64,000 bases of DNA. Origin: Hoplostethus atlanticus. Lineage: Eukaryota; Chordata; Actinopteri; Trachichthyiformes; Trachichthyidae. The translations under genes were made by a program, and so were the position numbers. Positions 6,301-50,569 of this stretch are shown here, piece by piece. Numbering within the stretch: the stretch's first letter is position 1; every line of letters starts with the position of its first letter. The notes below the pieces were generated by a model. It searched no databases and was not told the DNA's origin. It saw only the letters and a program-made list of their open reading frames with translations. The DNA lies in NCBI GenBank assembly GCA_034670405.1, contig JAXDDX010000057.1, positions 1,535,001 through 1,599,000 on the forward strand. Direction: 5' to 3'.

Positions 6301-9300
6301 TCCGCCCTAAAACACTTTAACACTGTTATAAATGAGCTATTGGTGATGCACCTTGCATTTCTGAGTCCATTTTGTTGTTTGGTGGTGGAGTTTTCATATT
6401 CCTGTGGATAAGTGGCCAAACATAGATGACGTGATGTCACATTTCTTTCTAGACTCGCCGACGTTCAACAATCACACAGGGAGAAATCCATCGTCGCCTC
6501 AAAGGACCATAATGCAATGCAGCCACAAGATGTGTTGCATTTTGAGTAAGGGCCGCGACTTTTTCTTTATTGGAAAGACTCGCTCTGCTATCACTACTCT
6601 GTCCACCAACCCGTATAACCCACAGCTGAATGCAACAGGCACGTTCTCTGGGGGGTGTCGAAAGTCATTCTGGGAAATGTAGGAAATCACCAAATGAAGT
6701 AGCAGTAGATGAGGCAGTAAATTACAACACTTCACCACACTTCACTTCACAGATGTATAACAGTATATGAGTATCCCAGGGTGGATTTTTCCTTTAAAAA
6801 CAGCAGTCAGGTATTTTCTGTAACACGGAGAGTAACTAGGACAGGCACGGCCATTCAGCTGAGTACCTCCAGCTGCCCCCAGGCCGTGTCTATCAGGCTC
6901 CGTGGAAAAGGAGCATACGAGGTGCATTGTGTTCATAGGTCGAGGCTGCGCTACCTCTTGGTCCAGCTGGAGAAGCTTCACGGTCACGTTGCCCTGCAGC
7001 TCCTGCCGGGGTCCGCTTGGATACACCCCCAGCCGGGTGATCACCACTGGGTGGAGGACCTTAAAATCCAGGGCTACGGCAGACACGTCAGCGGGGGCCA
7101 GCGCCGAGGGGTCAGACACCTTCACTAATTCCATCTCTGTCCTGCCCTGCCACTGGGACAGAAAGAGGTCTGGGGATCAGAGAGTTACTGAACAAGCACA
7201 CGTGAAATTTATTACCACCCCAACATGCTGACCGCCTCTTTTCGGCGATGAAGATCGGGTGATTTGGGGAGGGCGAGCGTTCACAGAAGTAGGCATACTC
7301 TATTAAAGCTACATCATCAGCGCTTTGAGAAGCTGGTTCTTGGGACCTGCTGTCTTCAAAGCCAGCGTCTGCTCGTCAGTGTGGTTTCTTAATTAGAAAA
7401 GAGCAGTTTATTACCCAGGAGATCAATGAAAAGACCAAGGCCGTTAAAAGGAAGCGGGCTTTTTACTTTACACCTTCTACGCAAATTCTGGTGCTCACTC
7501 GTAAACAAAGACAATTAAAGGCAAGGCGTCGCAGAGAAAGACAAAGCAGGAGTTTATCAGAGCAAATGTTTCTCTCACTGATTGGGTGGAAATGAGCAAG
7601 ATGGTTTCACATATGTATGTTTTTTTATTCCTTTTGCAGATCAAATATGAATGCTTTTGTCTGTACTTGTAAATATTGATTACTGATCTGAGTGCGTCTG
7701 CTGGCATTGACCATTTTGAGTATACTTGTTGATTCTATAAAAAAGAAATCTGGGGAAAAAAATGGGTAACACTTTACAATAACCATCATTAATCATGATT
7801 TAATATTTATCTATTATTTAGTAGTGAAGCAACAACTAATTGATGATTTGTCAATGTCCATTGTTTACTAATCATTAGTAAATTATAGTGTATTTATCAT
7901 TAAGTAATGACGTATTAGTAAGTCAATCATTTGTATATTTTACTACAATTCAGAAAAAATTAAATCAATGATTTATCCAATTGCCTCTTTAGGCCTACAG
8001 CTTAAAATACAAACACAGAATGAAACAAAAACTGTCAAAGCCATAGAAGTGAATCCAACAATCCCTCTGTCATGTACTGACTAACAAGCAAGGAGCGATG
8101 CTGGTAATGAATTTCAAGGCTTTCACAAATTAAATGAATGAAATTACCCAAATGTTATTGAGGCACGCCGTTTATTTACACATACACATAACAGTCTGTA
8201 TTGGAAGGTTTAACGGTAAGTGTTCAGAAATGATTTGTGACACATAATCATCATAAAGTTTCACTGAACCGCCATTCATCAAGTTTAACCACGAACACCT
8301 CGTCTAGGGGCAAAGTACAAAATACAGATTTACCAAAATGTTTCGGACAAAGTCAAACGAGCTATTTAGCATTCACCTTTCAGCAGCCTCAACATAACTA
8401 CCAAAAAAAACCTGTGATGCATGCAGTATAAACAAACAACACACAACAATTAATTGTCCACTTAGTGCGTGCTTTGAACTAAATCTAGAGTCAGGAGTCC
8501 CACTGTGTTTAAAAGAAGCCATTTTCTCCGTCTCTTCCAATCACACAAAACATGTCACACCAAAGCTGTTGCCCGTCCCTCTTTCTGAGGCAGGTCACGT
8601 TAACACGTACAGCCATTAACACCGTGGAGTGCACAGAATGGGCCGGGGAAATGAAACAGCACTGTGAGCTCTGAGGTCCAAAGACTGAAAAAGCCCATTC
8701 TGATGAGCAGTGATTATGTTTACACGAAGGCGGCGAATCTATCCGAACTGAAACGTAGTCAATACTCTTGAATTGGATTGACTGCTTAAAGGCGGCAAGA
8801 CAGAATTACTTCAACGTTTCAGTCAGATCGGTGAGATCTAGATTATTTTACACAAGTCGGTTCTTTGTATAGCTTTAATTTACAGATATTATCAAGAACG
8901 ACTGAACGAATGCTTCAGTGCTAGTGATGCTTGCAGCAGAAGTGTTGACTGTGAGAGATTTCTGCTGTGGCCTTGTGTATCGACAGGAACAGATTTGTGT
9001 CCTTGAGCTGTGTGTGAACATGAATACGAGGTTTGTTTCTTTTCTGAACATGCATTCTTTTCATTGTCCTCCTCTCCTCTCATGCAGCCTCTGCTCTGCA
9101 ATGTATGAATGTATGCACAAGTGACGGATTCTATAAAGACCATCTCTCACTCTTAAGGCTGTTACATCCACTCATTTGCGTGTTGCTAGGGTTTGACTGG
9201 GTTGGTGCACACTTTTTTTTTTTTTTTTTTTTACCTGGCTCGGTGAGGTTCAGGAGGGAGCAAGAGTAAGGATCTTCTCGATCTTCTTCTGGAATGGGGC

Positions 9301-10751
9301 ACCCATGCTCGCCCACAATAAACTTCACCCCCACCCTAAAAAAAATAAAAATCACAACACAATCACATTCATCTCAGAGCCTTTCGTGTAATATCAGGCT
9401 ACAAGATGGTTATTTCTAAAGCTTGTCCATCTATCCAACCTCCCACCCTCTGTTACCATGGTTACCGAGGGTTGCTTAAAGGCCATCATGCCCTATCTCT
9501 TCTCAGATCACTGGATGAGAAGGTAATAGACAAAAAAGAAAGAATGAGAGAGAGAACAATATTGGCCCCTGGTCAGATAAAGATAAAGGTGTTGACAGGG
9601 CAGTCAGTTATTTGCTGCCAGCTGCAGGCTTTATTTCCACTACATGAATTTGGCTTTGGGGGAGAAAAACAACCCTGCTGGAGTCTGAGCTCCCACCAAC
9701 AGACCTGTGTTGAAACTGGGGGTGGTCTTGGAGGTAGCCCAGCCAGGTCTCCCTTATCACTTGCCGGAGCTCATAATGGTGTCTCGCTGACAGCACTCCC
9801 ACCAAAACTTCATAGGAAGGTAACACTTCATCTGCATTGGAAACAGAAGAGTGTTGCAATTAGCCATACAAATTAAAAAAACCAAACTGTAAGAATCACA
9901 GTTTTGAGTGAATAACCCAAACAACAGGATATAATAGAATATAATGCAATATAATATAATATTAGCATTTCTATCATAATATCTATCACTTTCAAGCATG
10001 CAGGGTATTAAACAGTGTCCTAACCATGCAGTAACCATGATGCAGTGGAAAATAAAAAGGTGGAGAAACTATGATCTCCAGTCAGTGATCACGATAAGAC
10101 TGCCAACATTAATACAAATACATTTTTCAGAAAAGCATGATTTCCTTTTTTCATTAAAAAGATCCTCATATAACTTACATCACTTTGATACTACCTACTA
10201 TTAGGCATACCATAATGTACCTCATAAAGATTTCTGCCTTTATGCCTAAAAAGGTGGGTAAAACTAGTTTAGGTGGGTTCACCCTCCGCTACACCACAGG
10301 TCCTGAGTAATAACGCAATTGACTTCATATGACCCTGATACTGGACTGGTGAACGGCAACACCGACCGCGGTACTTTCAATGCAACACGGTAAGGCTGCG
10401 ATGCTTTGCTCGCTCCTGTCTTGTTACGTTTCCAGAAGCTAGGCTATCCCAGCAACGCCCAACATTAGTGAACTATTGAAAGAAACAGTTACGCGTCTAA
10501 GAAACAAAACAAGCACATTGTATTTCCCGGTACAAACTAAAACCCCAAAACAGACAAGAAAGCAACCAATAACCCGCGCGTAATGTAAAACAAAAAAAAA
10601 GTTGCGAGGCGTGTGATGATGAACACCCCGAGCAGGACTGTAAAGTACCCGAGTGTGTGGTGTCCGGCCGGGTGGAGGGTCGGTGTGCCAGCCACAAGTG
10701 CAGCAGGACGGCGACAGCGCAGGGGAGCAGAGTAAATGCTAGACTACGCAT
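3368..10751 (-). CDS. b3galnt2: Beta-1,3-N-acetylgalactosaminyltransferase 2, 12 coding exons
   Basis: GT31-family type II membrane glycosyltransferase of the ER. In the known family it adds beta-1,3-GalNAc to GlcNAc-beta-1,4-Man on O-mannosylated alpha-dystroglycan (core M3); human defects cause dystroglycanopathy. Coding exons in transcript order: 10649-10751, 9705-9831, 9235-9335, 6955-7136 (or 7152), 6034-6129, 5831-5941, 5655-5733, 5037-5220, 4585-4710, 4172-4331, 4012-4068, 3368-3505. They sum to 1,464 nt (487 residues; human about 500), with matching phases at every junction. Visible features: an N-terminal hydrophobic anchor (residues about 4-21, ending LLHLWLAHR), the start of the catalytic domain (VGVLSAR), [23 protein letters not shown], the metal-binding DxD as KTDDDCYID (DDD at residues 342-344), [14 protein letters not shown], and a Cys-rich tail. 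The start ATG at 10751 matches the human N-terminus. Exon 10 has three nearby AGs; the first restores WWGNFR as in human. The acceptor of exon 4 is ambiguous (see findings). Identification is very secure. Confidence 0.95.
6288..6797. mobile_element. TTAA-flanked MITE in a B3GALNT2 intron
   Basis: The left end reads TTAA then AAGGAAAAATCCGCCCT. The right end reads AGGGTGGATTTTTCC then TTTAA, so the ends are near-perfect inverted repeats (one base more or less) bounded by TTAA. The interior of about 470 bp has no transposase. TTAA target duplication is known for piggyBac and Kolobok superfamilies; the parent family is inferred. It lies between the exons at 6129 and 6955. Confidence 0.7.
7153..9234 (-). 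other. B3GALNT2 intron 3
   Basis: A 2.1-kb intron holding the MITE-like remnant near 7.8 kb. No other coding or structural feature is seen. At its upstream (9.2 kb) end a 20-base T run (9213-9232) abuts the donor of exon 3. Confidence 0.6.
7765..7975. repeat. Fish MITE-like remnant (AT-rich)
   Basis: It begins GGTAACACTTTACAATAA, the start of a very common fish short DNA-transposon family as I remember it, and continues into repeated variants of ATTAGTAA and ATCATTA. The far end is not clear. It sits in the large intron between B3GALNT2 exons 3 and 4. Confidence 0.4.
9832..10648 (-). other. B3GALNT2 intron 1
   Basis: About 0.8 kb of AT-rich intron with short ATATAAT-type repeats near 9.93-9.97 kb. 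Nothing else is recognised. Confidence 0.6.
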
Positions 10752-10960
10752 GGACGGAGCCCTTCATGTAGACACGCAGCCTCCAGCTTCTCCACTCGGG
10801 GACCCAGCGGCACGGAGCCTCTTCCTGAGCTGCACAACGCGGGTCTGTGTCTGAGTGTGTGTGCGTGCGCGGTGCATCTCAGTTCTGGAGCTGAACGACG
10901 TCTCACGTCCGCCTCTCCTGCTCGGTGAGTTGGACCAATGGGCGCGAAGAAGCCGAGCCG
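10600..10960 (-). promoter_or_regulatory. CpG-rich promoter and 5' end of B3GALNT2
   Basis: The stretch around and upstream of the ATG at 10751 is clearly richer in CpG and GC than the AT-rich DNA on either side. It includes an inverted CCAAT box (ACCAATGGG on the plus strand near 10933) beside GCGCG. This fits a TATA-less housekeeping promoter. No transcription start can be placed from sequence alone. Confidence 0.5.
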
Positions 10961-23832: not shown

Positions 23833-26196
23833 TCAGCCTGCAGCGTAACTGCTTAGAAAGGAGTAGAACATGGGCAGCTTCATGCGCTGCTGGTCCCGTC
23901 GGCACCAGGCCATCACTGTACCCTCGCTGTTGGCTGTGTAGAGGTGGTGGCCGTCACATGAGTAGGTCAGGCTGAGGTAGGGACACAGAGAGGATTATCG
24001 TCACAAATATGATTTGCTGGCAAACACTGGCAGCCAATGGCCCTTGTAAAATGGCAGTAGATGAAAGCAAAGGATAGCATGGACGTATGGGAAAAAAAAA
24101 TGATACCTGATGATAGGTTTGCTTGATTTGGGGAAGGTGATCTCTCTCACTGGTTTCAGATCCCAGGTACTCCACAGCCTGAACCATTTCAGAAATAAAG
24201 GCACTTAGTCCGAGTAATTCAAGGTCGTTAGAGGAGAAAAGGTGTAAGCGTCGAGTCAGTACTCACCTGACCACGCCGTTCTCGAGCCCCCCAGCGATGA
24301 CGTTGACAGACACCCCCTCTGGCTGATTGGAAAAGGCCACAGAGCAGATAATCTCTCTGCAGTGGACGTGGCCAATCAGATCGCCGTTCACCGTCCACAG
24401 ACGCAAGTCGCTGCCTCCGCCCACTGGATACAAGCAAAGAAAACATCATGACTCACACATCAAAAGGTATCAATCAATAAACACTGAGAGGCAAAGAAAA
24501 TCCACAGAGCAAGGCAGTCCTCACCTGAGTCACAAACTGTTGCAATGTCACCTGTGGTCTCACTGGCGGAAACTGCTGTCACTGGGCTTTTGTGGCCTGT
24601 GAGGCTTTGTACATAACACAGCCTGAGAGAAACACACGGCAGTTCAGAGACCAACATGGAAACAGTAGCACCAATTCTGTATATTGCAAAGCATCACCAC
24701 GACTCCCATACACATACACTCCCATACTCCATACACACTGACCTGTTGAGGTCCCAGAGAATACAGGTGCCATCTTTGCTGACACTGATGAGGATACTGT
24801 AGGGCTTGCAGACAAACAGGCTGGTGACTTCCCCTGTGTGTCCATACAGGTGAAACTGAGACTCCACTTCCATCTCTGAAGGCTAAAAAACAATACACAT
24901 GGGACAGTCATTTTACAAAACCAGCCACATATTAGAGACCAGAAATACGTCCAGATACGGGCAGGGTATAATTAGCCCACTAGTGATTTTACCAATCTCT
25001 CTAAAATGGTCATTCTTACCATTTTATAGTCTATTGATACCCGACAGACAAATATGTAATAGTCAATATGGCTAGCATCATCGCAGGCTAAAACAATATG
25101 AAATAGTTGATAAATAAATAGTTAGAGTATAGTTAGAAATAGTTTTGGTTCAGTGACAATAAAAAAATCTGACTCTACGAGTGGGGGATGAATGTGCACC
25201 CTAATAAAATGTTTTTTATTTTTTTTTGTGTGGCTCCTGTTTCTCTAGGATACATCCGAGCTGTGGTAACAAACAGATGAAACCGTTTTTGAAACAGGTT
25301 TTAATTGAGGTAAGAGGGGTTACTTTACATTCCCTACAAGCTCCCTTAAAGCACAAACCACAAAGACCACAAATAAACCATAAAGAGTAACAGGAATTTC
25401 AGAAAAACACAAATTGATGGCTACTGAAACACCCTTCAGAGACCGAGAGAGGAGGCCTGGGTATCCATTGATGGGGACCAGTGGAAGTCTGAAAGCCTCT
25501 CTGATGACTGAACTCCCGGACCCATAATCCCACTTGTAGGCTTGGTAAAAATGTGTTTCTAGGGCAACTGTGATATGACTAATGAAGCCGCCACTGAGAA
25601 ACCCAGAGCATTTGTGCACGGTGAGGCCGTCTAGGGGGGAGTGGGTGGGGGATAATGGAAGATGGGTGGGTGGGTGTTGATGTGGAGGCAGAAGGTTGGA
25701 GGGGGTGGAAGGGGGACGTTGTCATGGAAACCCACCGTGGTGCTGGTGAAGCGGTTGCTGTAGGCGGTGATGACTCCACACTTGCTACCTGTGAATAGCT
25801 GGCAGCCATCAGGGCACCCAGGCACAGCTGGTTACCTGGGAGAGAGGGAGACGGACGGTCAGAAAGCAGGAATGAGCAGCCTAACAGCTGCTTGGGCAAC
25901 AGAGTAGATGCAGAGTTGAGTAACGTTGATGGCAAGATTAACTCCTTTCACTTGAGGGTGCTCTGGATTTTTCTAAGCTCTTCCACAAAGAGAGGTTACA
26001 TGTTCGTCTGATTACTGCCCTGATTGTCCTACGTAGGCTGTGCTGAGCCTTGTGTTCACCTGGTGAAGTTGCGAGCACTGGATGAAGTTGATGGGTGGCT
26101 CGCTCTGTTTGCTCTTAAGCCGCAGCATGTTGTCTGCATAGCCCCAGCTCAAGATGGCTGACCACTGGATGTCTGTGCTGTGCATGCTCCTAACGC
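23833..26196 (-). CDS. lyst: LYST WD40 region, exons C46-C52 (C47 frameshifted)
   Basis: Residues about 3556-3835, ending [11 protein letters not shown] then TGA as in human. Landmarks are [106 protein letters not shown] and [19 protein letters not shown]47 is 100 nt where 99 are needed; the surplus base lies in the GGG at 25812-25814 (plus strand). Read literally, TGA follows at 25809-25811, removing about 260 residues. Confidence 0.93.
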
Positions 26197-29100
26197 CTAC
26201 AGAGGAGAAAGAGCAAGATCAATAGGCTGAGGTTGTGGGCCACTGGTCAATACATATATCCAAGGTCAGTCGTGACTTGACTGGTGCGTTTCCTACCCTG
26301 CTCCTTGCTGTAAATCATCATGAGGCAGAATTTGCGCGACAGCCCACAGATCGCTCGCGTTGGCAGAGCCAGCAGGGATCCAAACCTCTCCCCATGGGGC
26401 TGGCTGAAGCACACCACTGGGTCTGGGGCACTGGGGGAGCCTACGTATTCACCCCACTTCAGACCTTTGATCCATGGGAGGGGACTCTGTGGAGGAGGAG
26501 GCAATCAGTTGGGAAGCAGATCATTTTGTGGGATTTGCATCAAGGTCACGTCCACTACACCGCACAGCAGGTAGTATAGCAGCTGACGGAGGACTTGAGG
26601 CAGACAGGCTGACTAGTATATCTATTTTTAGATATATTATTAGATTGTTTTCAGATATTAAGCAAAAGAAATCGATCTCCTCCCCTACAGTATAGATTAC
26701 CGGGTAGACTATTTCCTTGGCCTGTTCTCTGGTTTCCCTGAAGGCCAGTTGAACCAGGAGACCCATGGCTGCTGGCAGCTCCCCCTCCATCAGGAGTCTG
26801 GGGCTGGCCCTGCTGATATGGGAGGCACTGAACAGTTGTCTGGGTGTCTGTCCATATGTCTTGATCATGGTCTCCAGGGCACGTCGCTGTACTGGGTCCT
26901 CTACAGCTGAAACATCCATGCCAAAATAGGTCTGGGGAAGGGGATATGAACATCAAAGTCAGTAACAAAGACAACTGCAAGCAAAGACATTGATTTTCCC
27001 TCTCATTCCTAAGAAAGAAGTGATGAGTAAAGCAGCCACTTACAGCTGGGTGGAAGACATTGATGGCCTGGACGGCGGCCTTGCCTTTCTGCTTAAGCCC
27101 AAACACCAGGTCGATCCACTGGCACAGCGTCTGGGACACCTGGTCCGACTCCAGCGCCTGCCGGTGGATCAGGATGAAGAGACGTGGGTCGTTGCGTGCC
27201 CAGGGGGGCAAGTTCACATGATTTACCCTCTCACTGTTCTGACGCACCCCAAAATCGAAACCTGTATAGACACATGGGACAATATGTTTCAAATTGTGAT
27301 CGCATGATGCTGTGAGAATTGTATAGGGTACTCTGCATGCATAAAACACTGATGGAAAAGAAGGATGACAAAAGAGAACGTAGATATACTGTATAGCAGT
27401 GTAGTTTCCTACCCTCTCTGTTGACCAGGAATTCTGGGAGGTAGAAAAACTCTGGAATGAGCTCTTTGACATCAGTCATGGACTCGTAGGAGGACAGGCG
27501 CCACGTGGTGTTCATGGAGTGAAATGTTCGGTCCGGGATATCAAAGCTCTGGTCTGATTAAGGCCAAAGACAATTAATTATAGATTCGTCTCTCCGATTG
27601 AAAAGATCCCCTTTCATGACCTTGGAAGCCATGCTTGCTGCATACATTTACAATCACATAAAAAGATGGGACACTTCAGAAGATCAGAAGCGAGAGAGAT
27701 GAAGATCTTGATCTGATTTAAGTGAAAGAGGGTGCGGTATAAAAGAGAAACATCCTTTCATGGATAACAGCTATGATGCCACACAGCCACGGCGATGTGA
27801 TACACAGTTAAAAATGAGCCCAGCATGTCCCTGCATTAGGCACTTGGTGCTAAAAGCATCACACATTTAGAGTTCCAAGAAGGAGCTGCCAACACAATGC
27901 AGACAGGTGGCACTCGGTGCTGCTAAAAGCTTTTTGAAGCTAAACAGTAATTATCTGTTGTTAAAGCGCCATGGGTTGGCAGTCAATTAACATTTAAAGT
28001 ACTTGTGGAAACTATATACATCGTAACACATTGTGCAGCTGTACCCCTCTGTGGTAAAAAAGTACTTTTTGTCTTAGTTTATGATTTTTTTTACTGGATT
28101 TTAGTGAAGGTTGGTGTAAGCAGGTGTGTGTGACTCACCCTGGTAGGCCAGGAACATCTTGGTGAAGGGTGGCATTCGGACTAGGAAGTGCAGCACAGTG
28201 CCACTGTTGGAGTAGTGTGAGCCGTAGTGGTAGGGCTGGACGGGGGGCATGGGGTCATCCTCGCGAATGCCCTTCTTGTACTCCTCCTCCAGGTACTGCA
28301 GGACAAACACAAACACCAATGTGTTCTCATAGAGTACATCACACTGGGCAACACTCGAGCAATACGTGCAGAAGGTACAACAGGTCACACCTTGTAATTG
28401 TCCACGTAGCGATCCTCTTTTTCTTTCGACTGGACTGCGATGGGTTTGTTCAAGTTCCTGCAGGACAACAAAATGGAAATAAGGCAGAAATGAATGATGA
28501 TTTCCTCTATGATCCTCTAGTAATAAATGACCGTGACATTTCCCTATTAGAAATCATTGCCCGTCTTGACTCCAGGGAGGTCCTATTTGTCTTCTGTAGA
28601 GCATCCAGTTCATCAAAACAATAACATGTCGATTAACCATGTCTGACCTGATTTATCATAATAGTCTGGAAGATCTCAGGCATAGACAGGAGCAGGGCCC
28701 TTATTAAGTATATGTGAAAGCAGTTTACTTTGAAAAACTAAAATAAAACAAACAAAAACAATTAACTGGACAAAAAAGACAATTAGTTGAAGTTTTGCTT
28801 TGTCAACCTTGCAAAAAGCATTCAAAGGCATTTCAGACCCGGGGTCTGGTGCATAAATAACAGAGGATGCACAAATTCTCTACGCAGTGCTTATGACTCA
28901 CCTTAATGACATTATATAATCTAATTTTCTCATTACATTTCCTTTTTTATGCATAATACATGACATGACCTAACCTCAAATGCCTTTCATAGACACACAT
29001 CCCATTTATAGTAGAGTTGCCATCCACTAACACTGACCTATAGATGCTGGTGTCCTGCAGGTCCAGAGTCTCACTGGTGTAGTCTCGCAAGATAAAGGGG

Positions 29101-32100
29101 AATACTGGGTACTGCATGAGGTCATTGAAGGAGCGGCCAGCATGCTTGTTGAGATGTGTGAGGTACTCAAAGTTAGAGATCTGTCCTGAGCCCCACAGCT
29201 GTGTGAGTGCGGTGATGTTGCCGTGCTCCAGTAGGTTGGGTAGATCAGAGGTCAGGATGTTATGGTAGACATCATCCCGGAACTACGCCAAGAACACAAA
29301 GAGAGATGAGATGATATCCAACACAAGCTTGAAGCAAAATGTGAGAAGAGTACAAGTCCCAAGAAACACACATTTCATTTATTCATCTTATTGCTGAATA
29401 ATGTTTTTTTGTCAATTAAAGGCCTAATGAACCCAGAGTTTCCCCTACAACTGCATAGGTGGAGTGGGTCACATTTGAGTCCCGCCCCACTTCACATTTG
29501 TACAGTTACACAAATTCACACCTGGGAGTTGCAGAGTACAACCACAGTTTTGAACCTTTGGCTACTGGAGCATATTGCGGCTAAATGCATTTCTCAAGGG
29601 GACCCTGACAGGATGTGAGGACGAGTTGAATGTCAGGCACTTTCTCCACCTAGAGTTTGCCATTTGGTCTGGTGATTCAAATTGGCAACCTTCCGGTCAC
29701 AAGCCTGCTTCTCTCACTTTTAAGACATGCATCTTGTATTGTTGTCTTACCTTGGTGTTGTCAAAGGCCAGCAGCAGCGTCCTGCCATTGGTGAGAAAGA
29801 TCTCCACAGCGTTGTCCCTCAGCTGCCACCAGCGCTTATGGACCTCCTTAATCTCCTCATACGTCCAGGAGAAAGAAGCTGCCTCAGTCTCCCCATGAAG
29901 GCTCTGTCCAAACACATAAAGACATCCAGCGTTGAGTAGCCAGACGGACTCACTTAATGCAATGTCATCCCTCTGGCGGTGCCGTGCAGGGAATAAGCCT
30001 AGACAGCCCCCTGATTTTACCTGGTTGTCATGAGCATCGGCAGCATTGTCCTCCACAAAGTACATCCCAGACTTTCCTGTGACACAGCATAGGGTGAGTG
30101 AGATTTGATGTACTTCATAAGAGCAAGATAAACAAACCCTCGGTGAATAACTAACAAACACGTGCATGAGAGGGAAAGCAGTATTCTCCAGTGCATAGGA
30201 GAGCACATTATTCTTTCTGCCTTGTGACTAGCTGCTATTGTAGAGAGTATATTATGCATGAAGCAGCTGTGGGCGAGGAGCAGTATCTTACCCAGAAGCA
30301 GCTCCCCTGCTGTCTCTCTGGAGGGGGCAACACTGATGCATCGTCTGGTGAACCTGAGGACAAACATTTGTCATTCAGGAAATACACCTCTCAATGTTAC
30401 AAAGGTGGATTAGAACATGTGTTTGCATTCTTCACATCATCCTGGTTTCCTGAGAGGGTTATATTGTTTACTAAAGGCTTACAGAGAAGTAGGAAATTAT
30501 ACCTGATGGGCTCACTAGTGGCCTTGTCTTTCACCGTGGAGGAGAAGGAGGAGTGAGTCTTATCCTCAAACAGGAAGGACAGTGGTGGCTTCATTGTGTC
30601 TGTCAGTCACACAGGACAGATTAAAGGACACTGAACCAGACAGACACAGACGGACACACAGCCAGAGTACCAGACAGCATGTCAGTGAAATGTTGCCTTC
30701 TTGCTAGAAGTCTAAGGTTTATTCACCTTCAGCCTTGCGTCTGTCCTTGAGCAGGTATTTGTTGGGGATGGTGAGGTAGCATCTCTGTAGGCGTCTGCGT
30801 TCCCGGTTGGGCCCTTCGGTGGGGTCAAGCTGCCAGGATGTTGGGTAGGATGTCTGGTCATACCACACCGCACTGAAAAATTGCAAGAGGATGCAATTCT
30901 TTCCTCATATGGAAAAGTGTTTCACAGAGCTTTCTAAACAAGGTACTCTGGTGCTACAAATTAATCTGCTTGTATGAGAAAATCTTTTATTATACTCAAA
31001 CTGACCAAATCCTTAGCAATAGCATCTCATTTTCTCTACCCTACATTTGAACACTTACACTGAAAAATAAATTAGGTATAAAAGGTGTGTCCCCATGTAT
31101 TGTAATTATCGCAATTACTAATAATAACAACTACAATTCTATTCTCCTCATTATTAATGTTGAAAGAAGAAGAAGAGTCACCACCACAATATCTATCAAT
31201 ATATTATATCAATTACACAATATATATCTATCTATATACAATATCGTGTAACCCTTCTGAGAGATAGATTTCCATGCTCACCGGTCATGTGTGAGCTGTT
31301 GCACCAGCTCTTGCCAATGACGACTGGCACTCAGGTCGATCTTGTAGAGGCCTCTGATGTGCTGGATGACTTTCTTCCTCTCCATGCCTTGCCGTAGAGA
31401 CACATTCTGAGTTACATCTGCTGCAATCTTGGAAATGTCCTTAGACTTTCCATCCAGCCTCTGGATAAGACTGCAGAGGAGAAAGGCAGAAATGGAGTGG
31501 ATAAAATAGCGGCTTAAAGACATAACACAGCAGAGCAAACCATTGACCAAAAACAACCGCTACTCACCCCCTCTGGGTGTTGGACATTTTCTTTTCCCAC
31601 GCCACTTTGCTTGTTTTCTCTTCTGCCTCATATTTGAACTTTTCCTGGATAAATAACATCAGAAGTAAACTAGTTTTCTGGGGATAGAAACCCAAAAAGC
31701 CTGCAGTGAAAAACAATCCTGGCCAACCTGACAGGGCATACTAAGGACTGCGGTATTTACGGAAGACCACAAGATTTTCCGCCTCCACAAATGTTGATCT
31801 TTCATGCTGTTGAGCTTTGGATTAGTGTGAAATATATCCAGGTAAACACTGTTTGGCTAAAAAAGGCTTGGACATTTTTTCCTTTCCCTTTTAACAAGGA
31901 ATGTTGATCTCTGTAGGACGCACCTCTTTGATGGCCTTGACCAAGTCTGGTTTGTGTGGCGCATTGGGGGGAATGCAGCGATGGCCACAAAGCTTGAGCG
32001 AGGTCATGAATATGCCCACAGCAATCTGCTCCTCTTTGGTGAGGCTGTCCTTGTGGTCATGTAGCATTTCATACAGGTAGAGCGATAACTTCGGTCCATG

Positions 32101-35100
32101 CTGAGAGAGAGAGAAGAAAATAAATCAATGTTGAATATTTTAGTTGCGTTTGAGCCAAGCCAGATGCCGTGAAGGACAGGAAACACACCCCATCCAGCCG
32201 GCTGACCTTCAGTAAAGCCCTAGAGGAGCGCACAATGTTAGAAGACTCCCATGGCAAAGCAAGGGGGCTGATGAAGAGCATGAAGACATCTGAGTTATTT
32301 CAGAGCCAAGGCCTGACAGCTGTCTGAGAACTCCTCTGTACGAGTGCAAATGCCAAACAAAACTAATGTACACTCACTCTTTACTTGATCCAAGTATCTT
32401 GATCCAAGAGCATTGCATACTTCAAATAAAAGTATTCCCAAATCAAACACATGATCTAAAATCCCAAGCATGCTTTTTTTTTTTAGCTTAGTAGTTGTCT
32501 ATGAATGTTAGCACTGTCACAGGGTAAGAGGACTTGGCAGACTAATGAGGCAGTCCCTTTGCACTCACCTCTAGACCTGGGCTGAGGCTCTCCCTGAGGA
32601 TTTCTGAGTGTCTGGGATCAAATACAAACTCCAGTGCCTCCCTCCTGTCAGACAGGGGAAGTGCAGGGCTGAGTGTGTGGACCAGCAAGCGGCCTATTTG
32701 GACCCTAAAAGTATCCCGACACGACCATAGGATCCTGCGCCACTGCTGATGCGGTGCTCCCCCACGACCCGTACTGCCCTGGGGAACCACAATCAACATC
32801 ACAAGGTCAGCCTTCATACACCAGAAATGTGAACATTGTAGATTTCCAAACATGGAAAAAGCTTGTGAGTAGTTATCATACCAGGCTGATTTTGATCCCC
32901 TCCATCATGAGTTTGAGGATGTCCTTCTGAAAGCTCTTCTTGCTAGCAGGGGGGAGGGTGAAGGGAATGGGCGAGGGCGAGGGCGGGACAGAGGCGGAGC
33001 TGCCCTCGTCTTGCACTTGTGCACCTGGATCCGGTGTGGGCAGCTGGTGGTCTGGAGACTCAGGAATACTCAGCAGGTCATAGAAGTCCTGGCTCACATC
33101 TGAAAATAGAGAGAGGTCCAGAGAGAACCAAGATCAGAAAACAAAACGAGAGCAATCTGGGAACAATGTAGGAGGCGTTGTTATACAGTTCTGCCCGAGA
33201 TTATTGGCACCCTTGTATTTAATGCAGATCATATCATAATCTTCTGAAATAACTGGAAATTGAAACAACTTTCAGTCTTCACACGTTCCTCTGTTTTGTT
33301 GAACAGCTTCAAAATTGAACAGATTATTGGCACCATTTGCTAATACTTTGTTGTACAGCCTTTGGCAATGATGATGCTTCCAAACGTTTCTTGTAACCAT
33401 CAATAAGCTTCCTGCACATGGCAGTTTCTCCACTCTTCAATTACAGCCGGCTCCAGTTCTTCAATGTTTGAAAGATTAATTTGACCAAGTGGCACATTTC
33501 AGGTCACACCATTGGTTCTCAATGGGATCGAGATCAGGACTCATCGCTGGATATTTCAGAACAGTCCAACGTTTTCTCTTGAACCATTCCTGGGTCATTA
33601 TTTGGAGAAGGAGGCGATGGTGTTTTGGGACTGGATAGGTGGGAGGAAATGGGTCTGTTGTTATCCTGCAAAGATGTCAATAAGCAAAAAAGGAGGCGTT
33701 TCTATTATTTACCATGGTAGATGAGTCTGTTGACAGCAAGGACCACAAGTCTCTGCAGCCGCTGGACAAACTCTGTCTCACTGGCTCGAATGGGGTTTTC
33801 CTGGCTCATCCTCCTCTGCATCATCTGGTGGAGCTCATCGCTGGCTACAGAGCGCATCCGCGTCAGGAGAGAGTCGGACTGGGCCAGGGAGACCCGGCGC
33901 CGGCCTAGAGGTGCATCATGAGGACATGCACAGTTATAAGAATACAAATTGTGTTGGTGTTGCCATCTCATATAACAGGTGCACTGGTTGCTGCACGTGA
34001 CATTATATGAGACACTTCAAGAGTTCAGTTCAGAGTAAGGTTATACAAATATCTCAGAAATCATTTAAGACTCCAAAGATCAAAATGCTATTTGTGCTGA
34101 AATGTTTAACAGTGGTTTAGTTCAGCATTCATACACACACTTGCACACACTAAAGCACCAGTATTGCACAAGAGTACTGGGCAAATTAACCCCCAGTTGA
34201 GGACCAGGGAAAGGGTGAGTTCACTGCAAAAAAGGGAAACATGTCCCTTGGCAGGGAGTATGTTCTCCGCTGTGGACAGCTGTCCCAGCTACCTGAGTCA
34301 GAGTGGAACATGTAGGATGGCGCTCCAGTGGGGGAGGGGAGGGGGGAGTCCTGGGAGAGGAAGCTGAAGGGAGGGGGCAGGGGGATCTGGCCATAGGAGC
34401 AGTAGTGCTGTCTGGGGATGCGGGGGATAATGGAGTCTTTCATGGCAATGGAACCTTTAAATTGGGATGGGAAGGGATCAACACAGACAGGTGAGAATGT
34501 CACAGTGAAATGCTTGAGAAGACTGGGTGAGTTTTGCACGATGACTGACTGGTCGGAAATTAAGACGATCAGGAATCTGTCAGGAAACACCATTTTCTAC
34601 CACCACACCCGTTGGAAACACTCACCTGCAATGCTCTTGCGCTTCTGATGGATGGCATGATGTGGAGAGCTGGGTACATTTACAGAGCTGCTCAGCTTCT
34701 GAGGGTCCTGATTGGCTGTGGTCTTTATGAACTCTATTGCTGACTGGAGGACACGGAACTGCAGAGCCACTGCCATCTCTGGAAAAAAGAAGAACAGGAA
34801 TCATTTACGTTTTAGGCATTTAGCTGAAGGAGTGTGCAAAAGTAGAATAAGCTTCAATTCCTAAATCACTAAAAATTACAAGCAATTCTTATGGTCATGT
34901 CAGAGCAAAGAAATAGCAAAGGAACAGAATAAGAGCCAAGGAAAGAGATAGCAAGTAGAGTGAGAAGGGAGGGGAAATCACTCAGTGAGAAAATAGCAAC
35001 GTGAGGTAGTTTTTGAAGAGATTAGTTTTCACCCTACGCCAGAAGATGGAGAGCGACTCAATCCATCATGCACTGCACACTGTAGCCCAGCTTCTCTGTT

Positions 35101-38100
35101 CAGCAGAGCTTGACAGCGTTATACCATTCAGAATTGTAGAGCAGAGCAGGAGACAACATTTATGTGTTTTGCATGTCCATTGCATAGTCTGTGTCCTGCC
35201 CTCACCCTGTGTGCGGTGCATCTTGCTAGTCTGCATGACACCTAGCAAGGTAATGAGGTCTTCGATGATGCGGAAGTACTGGGACCCCGAAGAGCTGCAG
35301 GAGTGGATCGTCACTGCCACTAACAGCTGCTGGATGTCACACACCAAGAGCTTGTAGTCATTCAGGGGAATACTGAGGAGGGAGGACGAACAAACAAGTA
35401 CAAACAAGAGAATATTAAGCTCAGGTAGTAAGTCGACCACTCTGCCAGATCAATGAAAACTGAGAGGATTCATTATTTAATTCATGGCTCAAGGGTTTAA
35501 AACAAAAACAGAAAAAGCATATGTGATTCATGCTTGGACAATGATGCAATTCAATGAATCCTCCTCCATCCTGGCAGCCGTACCCGTTCTCCATGCCGTT
35601 GAGGGTCGAGAGGGTGTTAAAGAGCACGTAAAGGAGCCCGTGGTCCAGCAGGATGTCTGCCAGCTTGGGACAGGCGTTGAGGAGCTGCAGCAGCATACAC
35701 AGGATGTTATGCACCAGAGAGTTCTCATACAGGGAGTTCTCAATCAGACCCAACACTGGAATGATACAGCGCTTCCTGAAGGGGGAGATATTCTCCATTT
35801 CCTCCAGGTCCAGACTGGAAAGAAATACAGAAAAAACAGACTTTGGCTGCAAACGTTGCTACATCAAGATTTATTCAACATTTCATCACCATTTATCATA
35901 TTTCTTTATCAACAAAAAACTTTTCTGCCTCAAGCAAGTGTAAAAACGTTGACATATTGAGGAACTTTCATCTAAAATTGCTGTGACACATCATCACTTG
36001 GATGAAAGCCCAGCTAATGTTGTATCGTCCCATGACTCACTCTTCCTCCAGACCCACAGGCCGTCCAAACAGCATCTCCAGGAAGCATTCGAGGAGCCCC
36101 TGGCTGCCCTGGTGGAGGTACAGCTGGTTGGCCAGGAGGGAGAAGCCGTGGTTCTTCAGGAACTTCTCCTTCTGCTCCTTGAAGGCTCTGCTGAAATAGG
36201 CATCCAGCAGCTAGGACAAAGGAAGGGAGTAATATGTGAAATATATAGCTTTAGTACAGTATCCTGTAGTACAGTACTGTTTAAATCTGTCTGATCCAAC
36301 AAGTCACAGTAAAATCATTACAGTTACAGTTTCCTGTTAGGGGCAGGTATGAGAGTCTCCTACAGTTAACTGTGCTTGAGAGCAGCGTTTCCTCAACGGG
36401 TGGGTTTCAAAAGTACCTCACGTCACCCTCTCCCTACTGAATCATACACCCTCTCCCATATCTTTCTTATCCACTCACTCTAATATGCTCTTATCTGTAA
36501 AAAAAATCCCTTCTACTGTACCTCTGTCCTTATCTCCTGCTTTTCCCATTTCTTTTCATAACAGTTATCTCTCCCGTGATTATTCTAGGGTCACAGGAAT
36601 ATTGTCTCAGAGCACCAAGGCTCTGGCCTTTGCACTACTTAATATTGGTGGCTTGTAATGTTTGTGATTCAGGAATTTAAGTGTATTCTACTCATGCACT
36701 CACAGTAAGCTGTTCTGAATAGAGTCAACTAGACGCCTAAAATATCAAACGGAAATGTAAAAATGACATTCTGATAGGATAATGGACAAAAACATCCCAA
36801 CTTGATGAAATGTTATGCAATTTACTGATCCATGATGTCATGAACGCGGTGAAATTTGAGCCATGGTTTAGAGTATATGAGACCTATCAACAGGGATAGA
36901 CAACCCACCTTCATGACACCTTGCTGGATGAGGGGCGAGGAGTGGTTGACCAGGACGATGAGGGCCTCTGGCTGGATGAGCTTGTCCATCACCTCCTCCA
37001 GCATGAGGTCAGGCAGCAGCAGCAAAACGCCCCTCAGAAGATCATAGAGTCCACAGCAGATCAGCACCAGGCAGTCTTCAGTGCTGGACCTGGGACACAC
37101 AGCGCGCACAGTATTGCTGACTTACTGAGGGGTCAGGAATGAATCATTTGTACACAAAACATATTTTATTTTACAGAGAATGTTGAATGTATAGGCTATG
37201 TGTTGAGAGATGTGGATAATCTGCTAATTTACTGTCTATTGCATGTCTTGCATTGTCCCTTTGCACTATAAGTAAAATCCTGTTGTCCTTGTACCATGTC
37301 TGACAGTATGAAACCTTTTAAGTACTCAACGTCACCAAAGCAAATTCCTGTACATTTACTGTACCACGTCTGTTAAAGTGATTTTGATGTTGATATTATT
37401 AATATAATCAAGTTGTACAGAGCAAGTGTGGATGTTTTGCTCATAGGGAGGGAATGGTGGGTTTTTTTGCATCTGTAACCCAATGGAATAAACCTTGCAT
37501 CAGTCAGGAAAGGACAGAGGCCAATTGTATACACAGTCTTTGTGATTAACCTGGGTCAACGCCAAACATGAGACTGTTTGAATAAGCTGTTCCAATAATG
37601 AATCCTGCTAGAGCTGATACAGCTTGCAGGGAGGGTGGGAAATTAACAACAACCATACATTTGGAAATTCTGGCTGTGGCTACTCAGTTTGTCTAGTTAG
37701 TTTCTGCCCTGCGTACACAGCTAAAGCAATCCTAATCCCTTTAATTAAATGGAAGATAAAAGTGGAAGACCTTCAGAGAGCGAAAAAACACAAATGTGGT
37801 TGTTGAGAAGATTATAATGAGCACATCTGCTTCAATCCATTTAAGCTTTAAGAGAGATTGACAGTAACTGGCTGGTGGATATAGGTAAATTAAACCAAGG
37901 CACTGCAAATCATTTTCACAGTTGGCTGAAGATAATTAACACACTCAACTGCAGTATGGAGATTGTTATGCAAATCAAAGACAAAAACGTTGTTAATCCG
38001 AGCAACCCTGTGATCAACTTAGGTATTTACAATTAGTTACATAGCAGAGCGGACGCCACATGGGCACACAGCACACATTACTGTAAGTTAAAGTGTAATC

Positions 38101-41100
38101 AAGTGTGTTATCCGTATAGACCAATATGGTAGATGATAATCAAACAGGCAAGCCTTGTAAAAGGGTACTATGGTATATAGTGGTATATATATACACACCA
38201 TACTATACTATGGTATAGTACCTGTCATTGGAGTCAGTCTTGCTGTGGGTCCTCTCATAGCCAGGAGAGTAGGTGTAGCTCTCCCAGTCCTCGGGCAGGG
38301 AGCCTCGATCAGCCGCAGTGGGCCAGCGACCAATGGCCAGGGAGCCGTTCGGAGCCGGAAAGGCCAGGCCCAGACTGGCCAGATTGCTTTGGCTCCTTTG
38401 GAAAGACTGGATGCCTTTCAGGCTGTCAGGGCGACGTGGTGCCTCATCACTGGCCCAGTCAAACCTGTCCTCAGACTCTGTAACCCCCACGCTGCCCTCT
38501 GCCAGGCTGTCCACCTCCGTCGCCTCATCCCGCTCCTCCTCTACGCTGATGGAAGGGGTGCGTAGGGCTCCTACCTCGCCCCCTTCCCTAGAGTCACAGA
38601 TGGTCTTGGCGGATTCACAACTGCTCAGGAACTGCTCATCACCTCCGCCCTTCTTGAGTGTCTCTGTGCTGCCCAGAGCTTGCTGAGTGGTGAGGGAGAC
38701 CCTGTCACCTTCAGCTGCCTCACTGGAGCTACCATGTCCAATTCGCGGTGTCAGCAAGGGGGAGGAGTACGGAGAGGGTACCAGACTCGGGGGGCGTAAT
38801 GACTGATCATCACCTCCATGTTCAGGTGAAGGAGGGTGGAGGTGGCCTGGAGGGCAGAAGAAACTTATTCAGCACTCATCAATTATTAGACTTTATAATA
38901 GAATAAAACATTTAGACTTTAGGCATTTTGCTGGACATCTTATCAAGAGGAGCTTATGGTATACAAATGATCACATATAGAGAGAGGGGCTAGATAAAGA
39001 ACTACAGAGAAAAAGTTAGAAGGCTTTTTTTTAAACTACACTAGACTATTTTCAGAGCAAGCAGAGGAGAAGCTAAGAGACATATGCTGACTTGCTACAT
39101 GTGCAAGTTCCTTTTCCCAGAAGTAATAGCGTTTACGTTACAACCTTAAAATAAAACTCTGCTGACCTTAATTCATCATGGAGTGACAATGGGGCTGTTG
39201 CAGCAGTGAACGATAAATAAATTAAATACATTTTTTATCATTTTCTAGTTGGAGGAAGGACATTCTAAAAAAAGCAGCGCTGACCTTCTTAGAAATGATG
39301 TCAATGAATTAAAAGGCTGCATTTAATTATCCTGCATGTGTTGTAAGACTGGTGTGGTAGGGGTGTACTGCACCTTCAGAGGGCGCCTCAGTGAACATAG
39401 TGGGGGAGAGAGAGACCACAGAGCTGCTGGCAGACTTTCCTCCACTGTTGGAGCGTCTTAGGTACATAATGGACTGGACCTTCTCCTGGTACAGCTTTGC
39501 ATCTGACACACAAAAGGATGAAAAGAACATGGCAAGTTAAAATCAATGTGATTTTGAAAAAGAAGTACTGATTACAACTGTTTTGCTACCTCACCTATGT
39601 GCAGCGAGAAGTAGAAGCCGGTTGGGGTGTGGCAGACGTAGGTGTTGGTTGGTGGGTGAACGGCCAGCAGGAAGTTGTAGACAAGTCTGAGCAGGTCCAG
39701 GTCCGGAGGAGAACCCAGTACTTCCTGGATGATTTTGACAAATGACAGACAGACTTCCTGCGGGATGGAAGTCAGATGCTCGTCCCGATGCTCCTGGAGG
39801 AAACAAATAACCCTGTCAGCAATACTCTCTGAAGAGAGGCAAGGTATTTTGTACGTTTTCTGACAGTGGCCTACCTGTAACACTTGGCAGGTGAGCAGGA
39901 AGCGATGCACCACCTGAGCCTTGAGGAACTGACGGATGTTGAAGACCTGCTGAGGGTGGTGCACCCTAATGAGGATCTCTAAGGCAGCAAGTAGGGTTTC
40001 CCACACGCCACACTGACAGAAACACAACAAGAAAAATGGACGATAATGGAGAGGCAGAGGCATCATTTGGAACTTCATGGCCTGCAGAGTATAACCCGGT
40101 GCTCTAGGGTGAACTAATGGTTGGGTTGAGAGAACTATCTCTTTCCTTGAGCAGAGTAAAAACACACATCACAATCTTAACCAGGTGTTGGACAGAAAAC
40201 AAAACATAAAACAGAAGTAGAATCTGCACACTGCAATTGGCTCCTAAGGTGTATGAATATGTTGACCTATGAATGTGACGCTTCAAGCTCCCTGCCCTTC
40301 ATCATGTATAAGCATATAAATTCATACACATTGGGAGCAACTTGCAGGAGGCAGATTCAGTACCATCGTTCTTTCCTGGAAAGCTGTTCATATGCTAAGC
40401 ACTGCATGGGTTCAAATCTAGCTGATACTAACAGAAAACAAAAAGAACCCCTGAAGTTCACAACATGTGTGTGCAGGCAAGTGTGTGTGTGTCTGTTGAA
40501 ACCAGACCTTGGCCAAACAAAATTTGCAAATAAGATCTTGCCCTTTGTTTTAGTCTACTTGCAGAGTGGGGTTTGCAACATAGTACAACAGCATGAAGCA
40601 TGAAGCTCAGATTATCACAGAAAGGTATCATAGATACATCAATTTAGTATATTATTTTGTAGCTAACCTGACACTTTCTATCTAAGCTGTCCTGATGTGG
40701 TAAACCCCACCCATCCAGGGCTCAAGGCAGGATAAAACAACCAACAATTTACTTGTTAGTGTATGGAGATGGAGATGTGTTTACCTCAGCCTTAGCCCAG
40801 ATTTTCCAGTCCAACAGGACCTCTGAGAGAAGCCTGATATCCTGCACCACAGCGGTGGACTCTGTGTCCAAGCGGAACTGACCGTCCTCCCCCAGGGTTA
40901 GGATGGGCCCACTGCAACACCCATCCAGCAGAGTCTAGAGAGGGATACAACATGGCAGCCGCATTAGATGTACAGAAATATCTACAGTGTTTGTCAAAAC
41001 TTGCACAGTGCTGCACACTTTAATCAGAAACACCGCAAACATATTGATAGTCATTATCTCTCCAGAAACAGCCACACGATTTAGAATCCCAGACAGGACA

Positions 41101-44100
41101 ATCAATACATTACCCGTTGAAATTGTACGGAGTACTTATCACTCTGTCAAACCCAACAACATTTATTCCCCTGAGAGTTCCTGTCTCTATTGATCAAGGT
41201 CTGTCATTTGTAAAAGTGACCAGCTTGCAGTGGTCATACATCTTATAGTCCTCTGGGTCTCTGACTGAGGTAAGACAGCAGCTTGTGATCTTGGCCTAAT
41301 TTTGAAGTCATGTTGATGCGGCACGACCTGAAATTTGCTGAAGATAAAGTTATTCTGCTGTCAGCCCAGTAAGGCAAATCCAATCGAGCAATGAAACACA
41401 ATGATCAACCAATAGTGTGTTAAACACCACCCGCATGTTATCATTGTAGGGACAAATACCAAATGTCTAAAGATCATTTGTCTTGTTAATGCATCATCTT
41501 ACGCATTTTATTCATTTATGCTCACTGTTATTTATCCAGATTTCTGTGCATTGTATTTTTTTACATTTTTGTATTTATTAATAGATTTATTTCTCATTAT
41601 TTAAGCATTTCTTATTTCTCATGCCCTCCATCCATTTCAGGTATGTATGAGTGTGTATCACTAATCTGCTCCGTTTTATGCCAAGCAGTATGTGAAACCC
41701 CAAAGCGCCAAAGGCAATCAGGGGTGCTGTGTGTCTCTACAGGAGCTCACTGTTTCATCCAGTCAGACAGAATCCATTTCAGCACACAACCATCACACAG
41801 CTCTATTACAGACACAGCCGGAGGGTCAAGTAACAGCAGAGTCAGAAAGCTGGCTCATAGTGGCACCAGTGTGTCAGGCTGAATTCTTGCTAGAAAGAAG
41901 TGCCAATGAATATGCTTTGCTGCACAAATCCATAGAGATTGTGGGAACAGATGAGAGCAAAGAGCTCAAGATCTGACTCACTTTCAGCATATGATATCCC
42001 ACGATGCACTTGGATTTGATGAGGACCTGGTGGATCATGGAGTATCCATGGTAACAGTCCATCTCGTGGATGCGGTGCTGGTTGAACTTGGACAGAGACA
42101 GCAGCACCCGCAGGGCCAGAGCCTGGGTCTTCTCACAGTCACTCAGCTCCACCGCCTGGACATCACCACCACCGAGATGAGGGAGAGAAAAATCACAGTG
42201 AATTGGCTGAATAGGACCACTGTGTGCCAGCAGGTGCCAGCAGTTGCCAGCAGTTGCCAGCTTGTATAACCTCCTTTCCATAAAACATTTCACAATGTTT
42301 CTGGCAACTCTGTGTTCTCTCAAAACAGGTGAATCACAAACATTGTTTTTGAAGCGGCATTATGTAATCTACGACCTTTATTGACCTCTATCAGCGACAA
42401 TTATGAATTGCTACACCACTGATAGAATTTATCTCCCCGTACACAAGTCTCTGGTGGCCTGTAATTGGCACAAACAATATAAGCACAAGTAAGCGTGCTA
42501 ATTAGAGCACAGATTCAACAGTGAGTAGGTAATGTGTCATAATCCAAGATAATAAACACTTCTTTGTCATTTGCGGCCGCTCACTCACATCATCCATCAT
42601 TGAGCAGCAGAAAGTGTGATAGGTAGGGGGGGTGGACAAGGAGGTTTGTTCTAAAACAGAGTATGGGCTGGAGAGTGAGTTTTGAAAGCCAGAAATCTCA
42701 TCATTGACTCATCATTGGAACGTCATGACTTTTCTATGGCTTTCCATAACTAAGGGGCTGGTTTCTACTACAGCTGGGCTTGCTGTGGAGGAAATCAGCT
42801 GAGAACCACCAACTAATGCAATGAAATTGTAAAATACACTCATTGACACAAAATCTGTCAAATTCCCTGACTTTCCCTGTCTGGAATACATCTCTCTATA
42901 GCTTTTTTTTCCTCCATGATATTCCAGAAATGCCATGACCAGAGGAAACCCTGACCACAGAGTCACATTAACAGCATGGACCATCCTACCTGTGCAAAGA
43001 GGAAGACAAAGGTTCCTGTTCCTCCAATTTTGTGCAGGACGTTCTGCAAGCCTTGGGGTTCAGTGGGGAGCAGACCCTTGAGAGAGTGGGGCTCCAGGGA
43101 AACACTCTGCACCTCCTTGGAGCTGAAAGGACGCTGGGTGACCACAGTCTTGGCCTGGCCCTTCAGTCGGATTACAGGCTCATAGATAGTGTAGACTCTG
43201 GGACTGCTAGGGGCATACACCACCGCCAAGCTCTCCTGTACAGCCAGAAACAGAATCAGACACATGAGCAAAACAATATTCATCCTTTTCAGCCAAACTC
43301 TTCATCCTTCAACTTTAAATCATTTCAGTAATGGAATTAATGCCAGGGCCACGTCTAACGCCAACCCCTTTTAAGTCCCAGAGACAACAAAATAGTACTG
43401 AGTGTGATGAGATAAATGCAGATGTGATTAGAGTAAATGTGGGAATTTACAAACAAAGATGTTCTATAAGATTCTTTCTATTCTTTCTTTCTTATCAGCC
43501 GAGCTGCTATCAACACAGCTATTAGCTTTTAATGGGAGAAAAACAAGTTTCAGTCTCACTGAAATACAGCAGGTGTAGTTCAACTGTAATAGCTTTTACA
43601 ATTGGGGAAAAATGATTTCCTACAGTGCAAGATCATTCATGACAAATAATTGAAGGAGTGCACTATGAAATGAAACAAGCAATAGAGCAATAGCAAGGAT
43701 TTGCTATGCACTTGAAGTACAAGTACTGGGATTAACAACAATGTGAATCTGTAGAAAAACCCATCTGACATGGATTGGGTAAAAGGTAACAGTAACAAGA
43801 TAACAATTCCTTGTTTTGTGTGATGATGTGCACAGTTGATGTAAAGCAAAGACAGGATGTGGTATTAAAAAAAAAGCACTTACAACCAGTGCTGTTGTGT
43901 CCACATCCTTGTTCTTCATCAGAAGTTCTCGTACATGCTCACACTTCAGCCCTTCCTGAGTAACATACTTGGAGAATGTCCCATTGGGCTTGCCGTACTT
44001 GCAGGGCATGATGGAGGTAAGGTCAGGTCCGTTGGCGTACAGGTAGAAGGCCTCCTCAGACCCTATTCTAGACCCTGGAAAAATGGAGGCGCACAGAGAG

Positions 44101-50500: not shown

Positions 50501-50569
<69 letters not shown>

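What the first reader, a model, noticed from the sequence alone, without database searches (positions are those of the whole stretch)
25736..25835. One surplus base in LYST coding exon C47 (WD40 region)
Splice sites and neighbours demand a 99-nt phase-0 exon; it is 100 nt. The frame reads VTSCAWVP, then TGA. Dropping one G of the plus-strand GGG at 25812-25814 gives [16 protein letters not shown], as in human. If real it would remove the C-terminal WD40 propeller.
Basis: partly seen in the sequence, partly recalled or inferred. Interest (0 to 1): 0.7.

Follow-up and report, generated by a model that had tools for sequence, protein, structure and literature searches.

The report
Probable assembly error in fish LYST
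A fish copy of the lysosome gene LYST really does carry one letter too many in one exon of this sequence, but similar one-letter slips elsewhere in the gene and in the gene next door make a mistake in the assembled genome the likeliest cause.

Summary
Window 25736-25835 (minus strand) is a 100-nt coding exon of a teleost-like LYST gene, between phase-0 splice sites, and it reads VTSCAWVP then TGA (25811-25809). Removing one base anywhere in 25811-25815 gives the human-like reading, so the surplus base has no unique position. I found no splice-site choice that mends the frame.

In my model of 51 coding exons with 50 GT-AG introns, only these two exons break frame. The held assembly (633 Mb) shows no other LYST copy in the two searches that answered. 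In 8 neighbouring genes (4,753 aligned codons) one more break appeared, in NID1; the SACS giant exon (3,859 codons) is open. LYST's 2 breaks in 3,698 aligned codons do not clearly exceed this background (P = 0.22, or 0.07 by another count).

Best explanation: consensus indel errors in the assembly, about 0.82. A real null allele remains possible, about 0.13. If the exon 12 break were real too, the protein would end near residue 1,605, so loss of the WD40 propeller would not be the main effect. Reads or transcripts must decide.

The parts
23833..62831 (-). LYST-like gene, start codon to stop codon, 51 coding exons in my model
   Evidence: tblastn and splice-aware alignment to human LYST typed from recall; exon chain, phases and GT/AG ends
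25736..25835 (-). Coding exon 46, 100 nt, phase 0 to phase 0, one surplus base (or two missing)
25811..25815 (-). Stretch within which removal of any single base gives the human-like reading (three distinct sequences, one protein)
25809..25811 (-). Premature TGA in the frame set by the upstream exon
26060..26196 (-). Coding exon 45, intact, leaves phase 0
24743..24882 (-). Coding exon 47, intact, enters in phase 0 ([15 protein letters not shown])
45112..45286 (-). Coding exon 12, 175 nt, second frame break, between HGHL and WVCGIR; best single-base removals lie at 45129-45134
44721..44881 (-). Coding exon 13, intact; read in the frame left by exon 12 it meets TAG at 44824-44822
45585..45678 (-). 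94-nt intron that my aligner missed and miscalled as a frameshift; not a lesion
3371..10763 (-). B3GALNT2-like gene, no frame break found; end points approximate, donor of exon 1 not resolved

Best explanation
The 100-nt exon is an intact 99-nt LYST exon in the animal, and the extra base is a consensus indel error of the genome assembly. Shown: the exon is 100 nt, the frame breaks, the gene is otherwise intact in my model, a second one-base break exists in the same gene, and a further break exists in the next gene. Inferred: that these come from sequencing or consensus building rather than from the animal.
For: 51-exon chain with 50 GT-AG introns, no in-frame stop and consistent phases except at exons 12 and 46. 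The part after the break is highly conserved: 180 of 201 aligned residues equal recalled human LYST in block 3601-3801, so the frame was under selection until very recently. Second break in exon 12: the register HGHL#VWVCGI|RKCEV; VWVCGIR is the only 7-mer of 63,979 on the minus strand that scores that high against IWVSGQR. In-frame ways out need a donor (TGT|GTGGAA, -0.5) below all 58 or an acceptor (-5.2) below all 59 of the local site scores. NID1, next to LYST, has a break too: of 4 donor-acceptor pairs above my score cut-offs 1 is in frame and it carries a stop. Two unlinked breaks in one gene and one in its neighbour fit a background of errors better than one mutation. The sequence lies in a 2.88-Mb contig without N in 264 kb, 1,161 contigs in 633 Mb, which suggests long reads (inference). 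Indel errors that break frames are described for such assemblies (passages of PMC9516821; PMC5632298; PMC8445201).
Against: The background is low: 0 breaks in the 3,859-codon SACS exon and 1 in 8 neighbour genes with 4,753 aligned codons; LYST, 2 in 3,698, lies above it, P(2 or more) = 0.07 at the control rate, 0.22 by conditional binomial. The surplus base lies in a run of only three C, a weak homopolymer. No reads or transcripts were available. The NID1 break may be one base missing or one surplus, depending on the donor, so a common sign of errors is not shown.
Confidence: 0.82

Rival explanations
1. A real null allele of LYST in the sequenced animal, of the Chediak-Higashi / beige kind: the mRNA is read to TGA at 25811-25809, and the protein, if the mRNA survives, keeps BEACH and loses about 226 C-terminal residues.
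For: The frame break is unambiguous in the sequence. Natural truncating LYST alleles live in captive animals: corn snake lavender, 603 residues lost, and Aleutian mink, 3,801 to 3,193 (passages of PMC7584913). A zebrafish lyst mutant is viable enough to be studied (passage of PMC11106369).
Against: A single mutation does not account for the second break in exon 12 or for the one in NID1. An allele with exon 12 broken would not be under selection at exon 46, yet both would have to be carried together.
Confidence: 0.13
2. LYST is being lost in this lineage (early pseudogene), both breaks being fixed.
For: Two independent breaks in one gene.
Against: No in-frame stop in the 51-exon model apart from the frame breaks, and the 50 introns keep GT-AG. 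No second copy to take over: 14 of 43 protein matches lie in this gene at 86-99% identity, the other 29 at 32-68%; the exon's DNA has one match. NID1 would need to decay at the same time.
Confidence: 0.03
3. The ribosome shifts +1 at GUG CCC UGA U and reads on in the conserved frame, as in antizyme (OAZ) mRNA, so that the full protein is made in a regulated share.
For: Skipping the U after CCC gives exactly V-P-D-G (equivalent to removal of 25811). OAZ1 uses UGG-UGC-UCC-UGA-U (passage of PMC11818727), which resembles UGG-GUG-CCC-UGA-U here.
Against: The likeness follows from the conserved residues WVPD plus one base. Downstream 70 nt fold no better than shuffles, z = -0.03 (pseudoknots not modelled). 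Human LYST (recalled) needs no shift. It leaves exon 12 and NID1 unexplained.
Confidence: 0.01

Closest known systems
Frame-breaking indel errors in long-read or collapsed genome assemblies
   Same: Single-base breaks in otherwise intact, conserved genes; false insertions and indels of this kind are described in PMC9516821, PMC5632298 and PMC8445201 (passages seen)
   Different: Here no reads were available, so the error is inferred from neighbours, not shown
LYST truncation alleles: corn snake lavender and Aleutian mink
   Same: A frame break or stop in the 3' part of LYST (PMC7584913, passages)
   Different: Those truncate within or before BEACH; this break lies after BEACH, and a second break lies far upstream in the same sequence
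Mouse beige-J and Ing3618
   Same: Lesions in the WD40 region of Lyst (PMC11106369, passages)
   Different: In-frame loss of one isoleucine and a missense change, not a frame break
Antizyme +1 programmed frameshift
   Same: NCC UGA U at the break and the +1 direction (PMC11818727, passages)
   Different: CCC in place of UCC, no predicted stimulator, no need of a shift in recalled human LYST

Membership tests
LYST (lysosomal trafficking regulator) gene | BEACH domain with PH-like domain before it | tested here: met
   Pfam Beach 6.1e-111, PH_BEACH 4.1e-21; LRBA and neurobeachin structures match one BEACH exon
LYST (lysosomal trafficking regulator) gene | C-terminal WD40 repeats | tested here: met
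   PF00400 1.9e-14 at 504-539 of the C-terminal piece, with X at the break
LYST (lysosomal trafficking regulator) gene | Full-length colinearity with human LYST | tested here: met
   2,410 of 3,698 aligned residues identical to the recalled human sequence
LYST (lysosomal trafficking regulator) gene | Conserved neighbours (human order recalled, not looked up) | tested here: met
   IRF2BP2, ARID4B, GGPS1, B3GALNT2 on one side, NID1, GPR137B, EGLN1, TSNAX on the other
LYST (lysosomal trafficking regulator) gene | ConA-like lectin domain | not tested
   No domain search was run on that part
Assembly indel error | Further frame breaks in unrelated genes of the same assembly | tested here: met
   NID1, 1 break among 8 neighbour genes; SACS exon 0 in 3,859 codons
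Assembly indel error | Rate in LYST no higher than background | tested here: inconclusive
   2 in 3,698 against 1 in 8,612 codons; P = 0.07 or 0.22
Assembly indel error | Extra base absent from reads | not testable with these tools
   No reads held
Chediak-Higashi / beige null allele | Frame-breaking change in LYST coding sequence | tested here: met
Chediak-Higashi / beige null allele | Change present in DNA or RNA molecules of the animal, with phenotype | not testable with these tools
   No reads, no record of the animal
+1 programmed frameshift of the antizyme kind | Shift site UCC UGA U | tested here: not met
   CCC UGA U here against UCC UGA U
+1 programmed frameshift of the antizyme kind | 3' stimulatory pseudoknot | tested here: inconclusive
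   70-nt nested fold z = -0.03; pseudoknots not modelled

The most novel reading that the evidence does not exclude
The extra base is real and tolerated: this fish makes its WD40-containing LYST by +1 ribosomal frameshifting at GUG CCC UGA U, an antizyme-like site, so that the share of full-length LYST depends on the ribosome (and perhaps on polyamines), with a BEACH-only form as the default product.
Probability: 0.01. Interest if true: 0.85.

Novelty: not a real feature. Interest (0 to 1): 0.12.

Why it matters
As an assembly error it matters only for annotation: an automatic gene model would call LYST truncated or insert a false tiny intron, and a loss-of-LYST claim for this fish would be false. 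If real, it would be a fish null allele of a gene for lysosome-related organelles, with expected effects on pigment and immune cells. The second break and the NID1 break are a warning that other 'broken' genes in this assembly need reads before any biological claim.

Tried and rejected
Third frame break called by my aligner at 45676: rejected. The sequence holds an ordinary 94-nt intron, ACAAGG|GTGAGA ... TTCCAG|AGGAGG, with matching phase 1; the aligner missed it because the region is poorly conserved. So the aligner can give false breaks in unconserved parts, and I dropped this row from the LYST count.

Alternative splicing of exon 46: no GT or AG site near it with a usable score restores the frame before the TGA. 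I looked at sites scoring above 2, by reading the sequence rather than by a full enumeration of pairs.

Alternative splicing of exon 12: in-frame ways out need the weakest donor or acceptor of the set; a micro-exon was considered from the intron sequence and set aside because VWVCGIR already matches in the exon.

Relatives in other collections: genome contigs and viral contigs gave 58 and 6 pattern matches, none of them a relative. Rfam: no hit in the window. Organism: not named by any tool; 'teleost-like' is my inference from gene order, structure and compactness. The Asian icefish genome paper (passages) came up in a search for fish LYST pseudogenes and reports no LYST lesion in the passages seen.

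A sacsin-like gene on contig C30 was left out of the controls because it is poorly conserved (34-54% to the recalled human pieces). It has an in-frame stop near 660,935 and a frame change near 661,440; counting it would raise the background and favour error. Three further SACS rows upstream on C3 (open frames 87, 538 and 65) were not examined. DISC1 in the flank was recognised but not tested. GGPS1's first residues and B3GALNT2's first donor are poorly modelled. Searches were cut in output, so genes in the flanks may have been missed.

Full report
What is there. The minus strand of the window carries a complete LYST-like gene, from ATG at 62831 to the stop at 23833-23835. My final model has 51 coding exons, 11,336 exon bases, 50 introns with GT and AG ends, and a protein of 3,777 residues with X at the two breaks. 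2,410 of 3,698 aligned residues equal the recalled human sequence. Pfam finds BEACH, PH_BEACH and WD40 in the C-terminal part. Next to it lies B3GALNT2, and in the fetched flanks IRF2BP2, ARID4B, GGPS1, NID1, GPR137B, EGLN1 and TSNAX, the neighbourhood of human LYST as I recall it. No tool named the organism; a teleost is my inference.

The finding. Exon 46 (25835-25736) has 100 nt between a phase-0 donor before and a phase-0 acceptor after. Its splice sites are ordinary to strong: the acceptor scores 13.7, at or above all 59 acceptors used, the donor 8.5, at or above 33 of 58 (these sites were among those that built the scoring table). It reads VTSCAWVP and then TGA at 25811-25809. Allowing one extra base raises the alignment score from 586 to 627; without it the best path needs an acceptor that is not AG. 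Removing 25815, or any of 25814-25812, or 25811, gives [33 protein letters not shown], score 170 in each case. So the claim holds, but the base is not uniquely in GGG.

A second break. Exon 12 (45286-45112) reads ...[16 protein letters not shown] in the incoming frame, and the next exon then runs into TAG at 44824. With one base less near 45129-45134 it reads HGHL-[V/E][15 protein letters not shown], matching human [20 protein letters not shown]. VWVCGIR is the only one of 63,979 minus-strand 7-mers that scores at least 25 against IWVSGQR. The gain in alignment score is smaller than for exon 46, 354 against 338. The in-frame alternatives use a donor (TGT|GTGGAA, -0.5) below all 58 or an acceptor (gcgag|G, -5.2) below all 59. 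I judge this break likely, not certain. A third break called at 45676 is false: a 94-nt intron lies there.

Error or biology. After many unanswered requests the window's own assembly could be searched: 632,777,144 bases, 1,161 contigs, window at C57 1535001-1599000. The exon's DNA occurs once. With the C-terminal 696 residues, 14 of 43 protein matches lie in this gene at 86-99% identity; the other 29 are at 32-68% and fit other BEACH or WD40 genes. So a decaying duplicate with an intact partner is not supported. I then measured frame breaks in other genes with GT/AG enforced (a GC donor was still allowed). NID1 1 in 1,186 aligned codons; GGPS1 0 in 298; GPR137B 0 in 395; EGLN1 0 in 360; TSNAX 0 in 280; B3GALNT2 0 in 489; ARID4B 0 in 1,232; IRF2BP2 0 in 513. 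That is 1 in 4,753 codons of 8 genes. The SACS giant exon is open for 3,859 codons. The NID1 break sits at an exon start, tag|GTATTGACC, near C57 1,618,350; of 4 donor-acceptor pairs above the cut-offs only 1 is in frame and it has a stop. Whether NID1 has one base too many or one too few depends on which donor is used. LYST (2 in 3,698) against controls (1 in 8,612): P(2 or more) = 0.07 at the control rate, 0.22 by conditional binomial. The sample is small, and LYST lies on the high side.

Judgement. One real mutation would explain exon 46 but not exon 12 nor NID1. A dying gene would explain exons 46 and 12 but not NID1, nor the lack of other damage (0 in-frame stops, 50 of 50 introns GT-AG), and it has no second copy. 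Sparse consensus errors, about one per 12 kb of coding sequence by the pooled count (0.081 per kb), explain all three. The contig sizes suggest a long-read assembly (inference). Frame-breaking false indels are described for vertebrate assemblies (PMC9516821, passages), unphased PacBio assemblies (PMC5632298, passages) and collapsed haplotypes (PMC8445201, passages). I put 0.82 on error, 0.13 on a real null allele, 0.03 on gene loss and 0.01 on programmed frameshifting.

If it were real. The stop comes after about 3,551 of 3,777 residues, so about 226 are lost, the BEACH domain stays and the main WD40 match goes. Lesions of the WD40 part are known to matter: mouse beige-J lacks one isoleucine there, Ing3618 is a missense change there (PMC11106369, passages). 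Longer truncations occur in lavender corn snakes and Aleutian mink (PMC7584913, passages). But if exon 12 were broken in the same molecule, translation would end near residue 1,605 and exon 46 would not matter.

The boldest reading. The break reads UGG GUG CCC UGA UGG; antizyme mRNA shifts +1 at UGG UGC UCC UGA U (PMC11818727, passages). Skipping the U restores the conserved frame. The likeness is what one extra base in the codons for W-V-P-D produces, and the following 70 nt fold no better than shuffles (z = -0.03; pseudoknots not modelled). I do not exclude it, and I do not believe it.

Noticed in passing
window 45129-45134 (exon 45286-45112): Second one-base frame break in LYST, between HGHL and WVCGIR.
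   Followed up: yes
L013, about 9350 (C57 near 1,618,350), minus strand: NID1-like gene: no in-frame splice pair without a stop at one exon start (tag|GTATTGACC); a one-base break of uncertain sign.
   Followed up: yes
L046 (C30 656001-666000), near 660,935 and 661,440: Sacsin-like gene with open frames of 1,644 or more and 1,458 codons, separated by an in-frame stop and a frame change: error cluster or decaying gene.
   Followed up: partly
window 45136: Strong unused-looking donor CTG|GTAGGT (score 7.6) inside exon 12, right before the second break; using it would leave the frame of exon 13 wrong.
   Followed up: partly
window 33479-33676, minus strand: Open frame with a Tc1/mariner-like transposase stretch (motif recalled, not searched) in a LYST intron.
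   Followed up: no
window 50505-50566 and 49441-49487: Long AG and GT dinucleotide arrays in LYST introns, the first just before the acceptor of exon 6 (50490).
   Followed up: no
window 25795-25825, minus strand: UGG GUG CCC UGA UGG resembles the antizyme +1 shift site UGG UGC UCC UGA U.
   Followed up: partly
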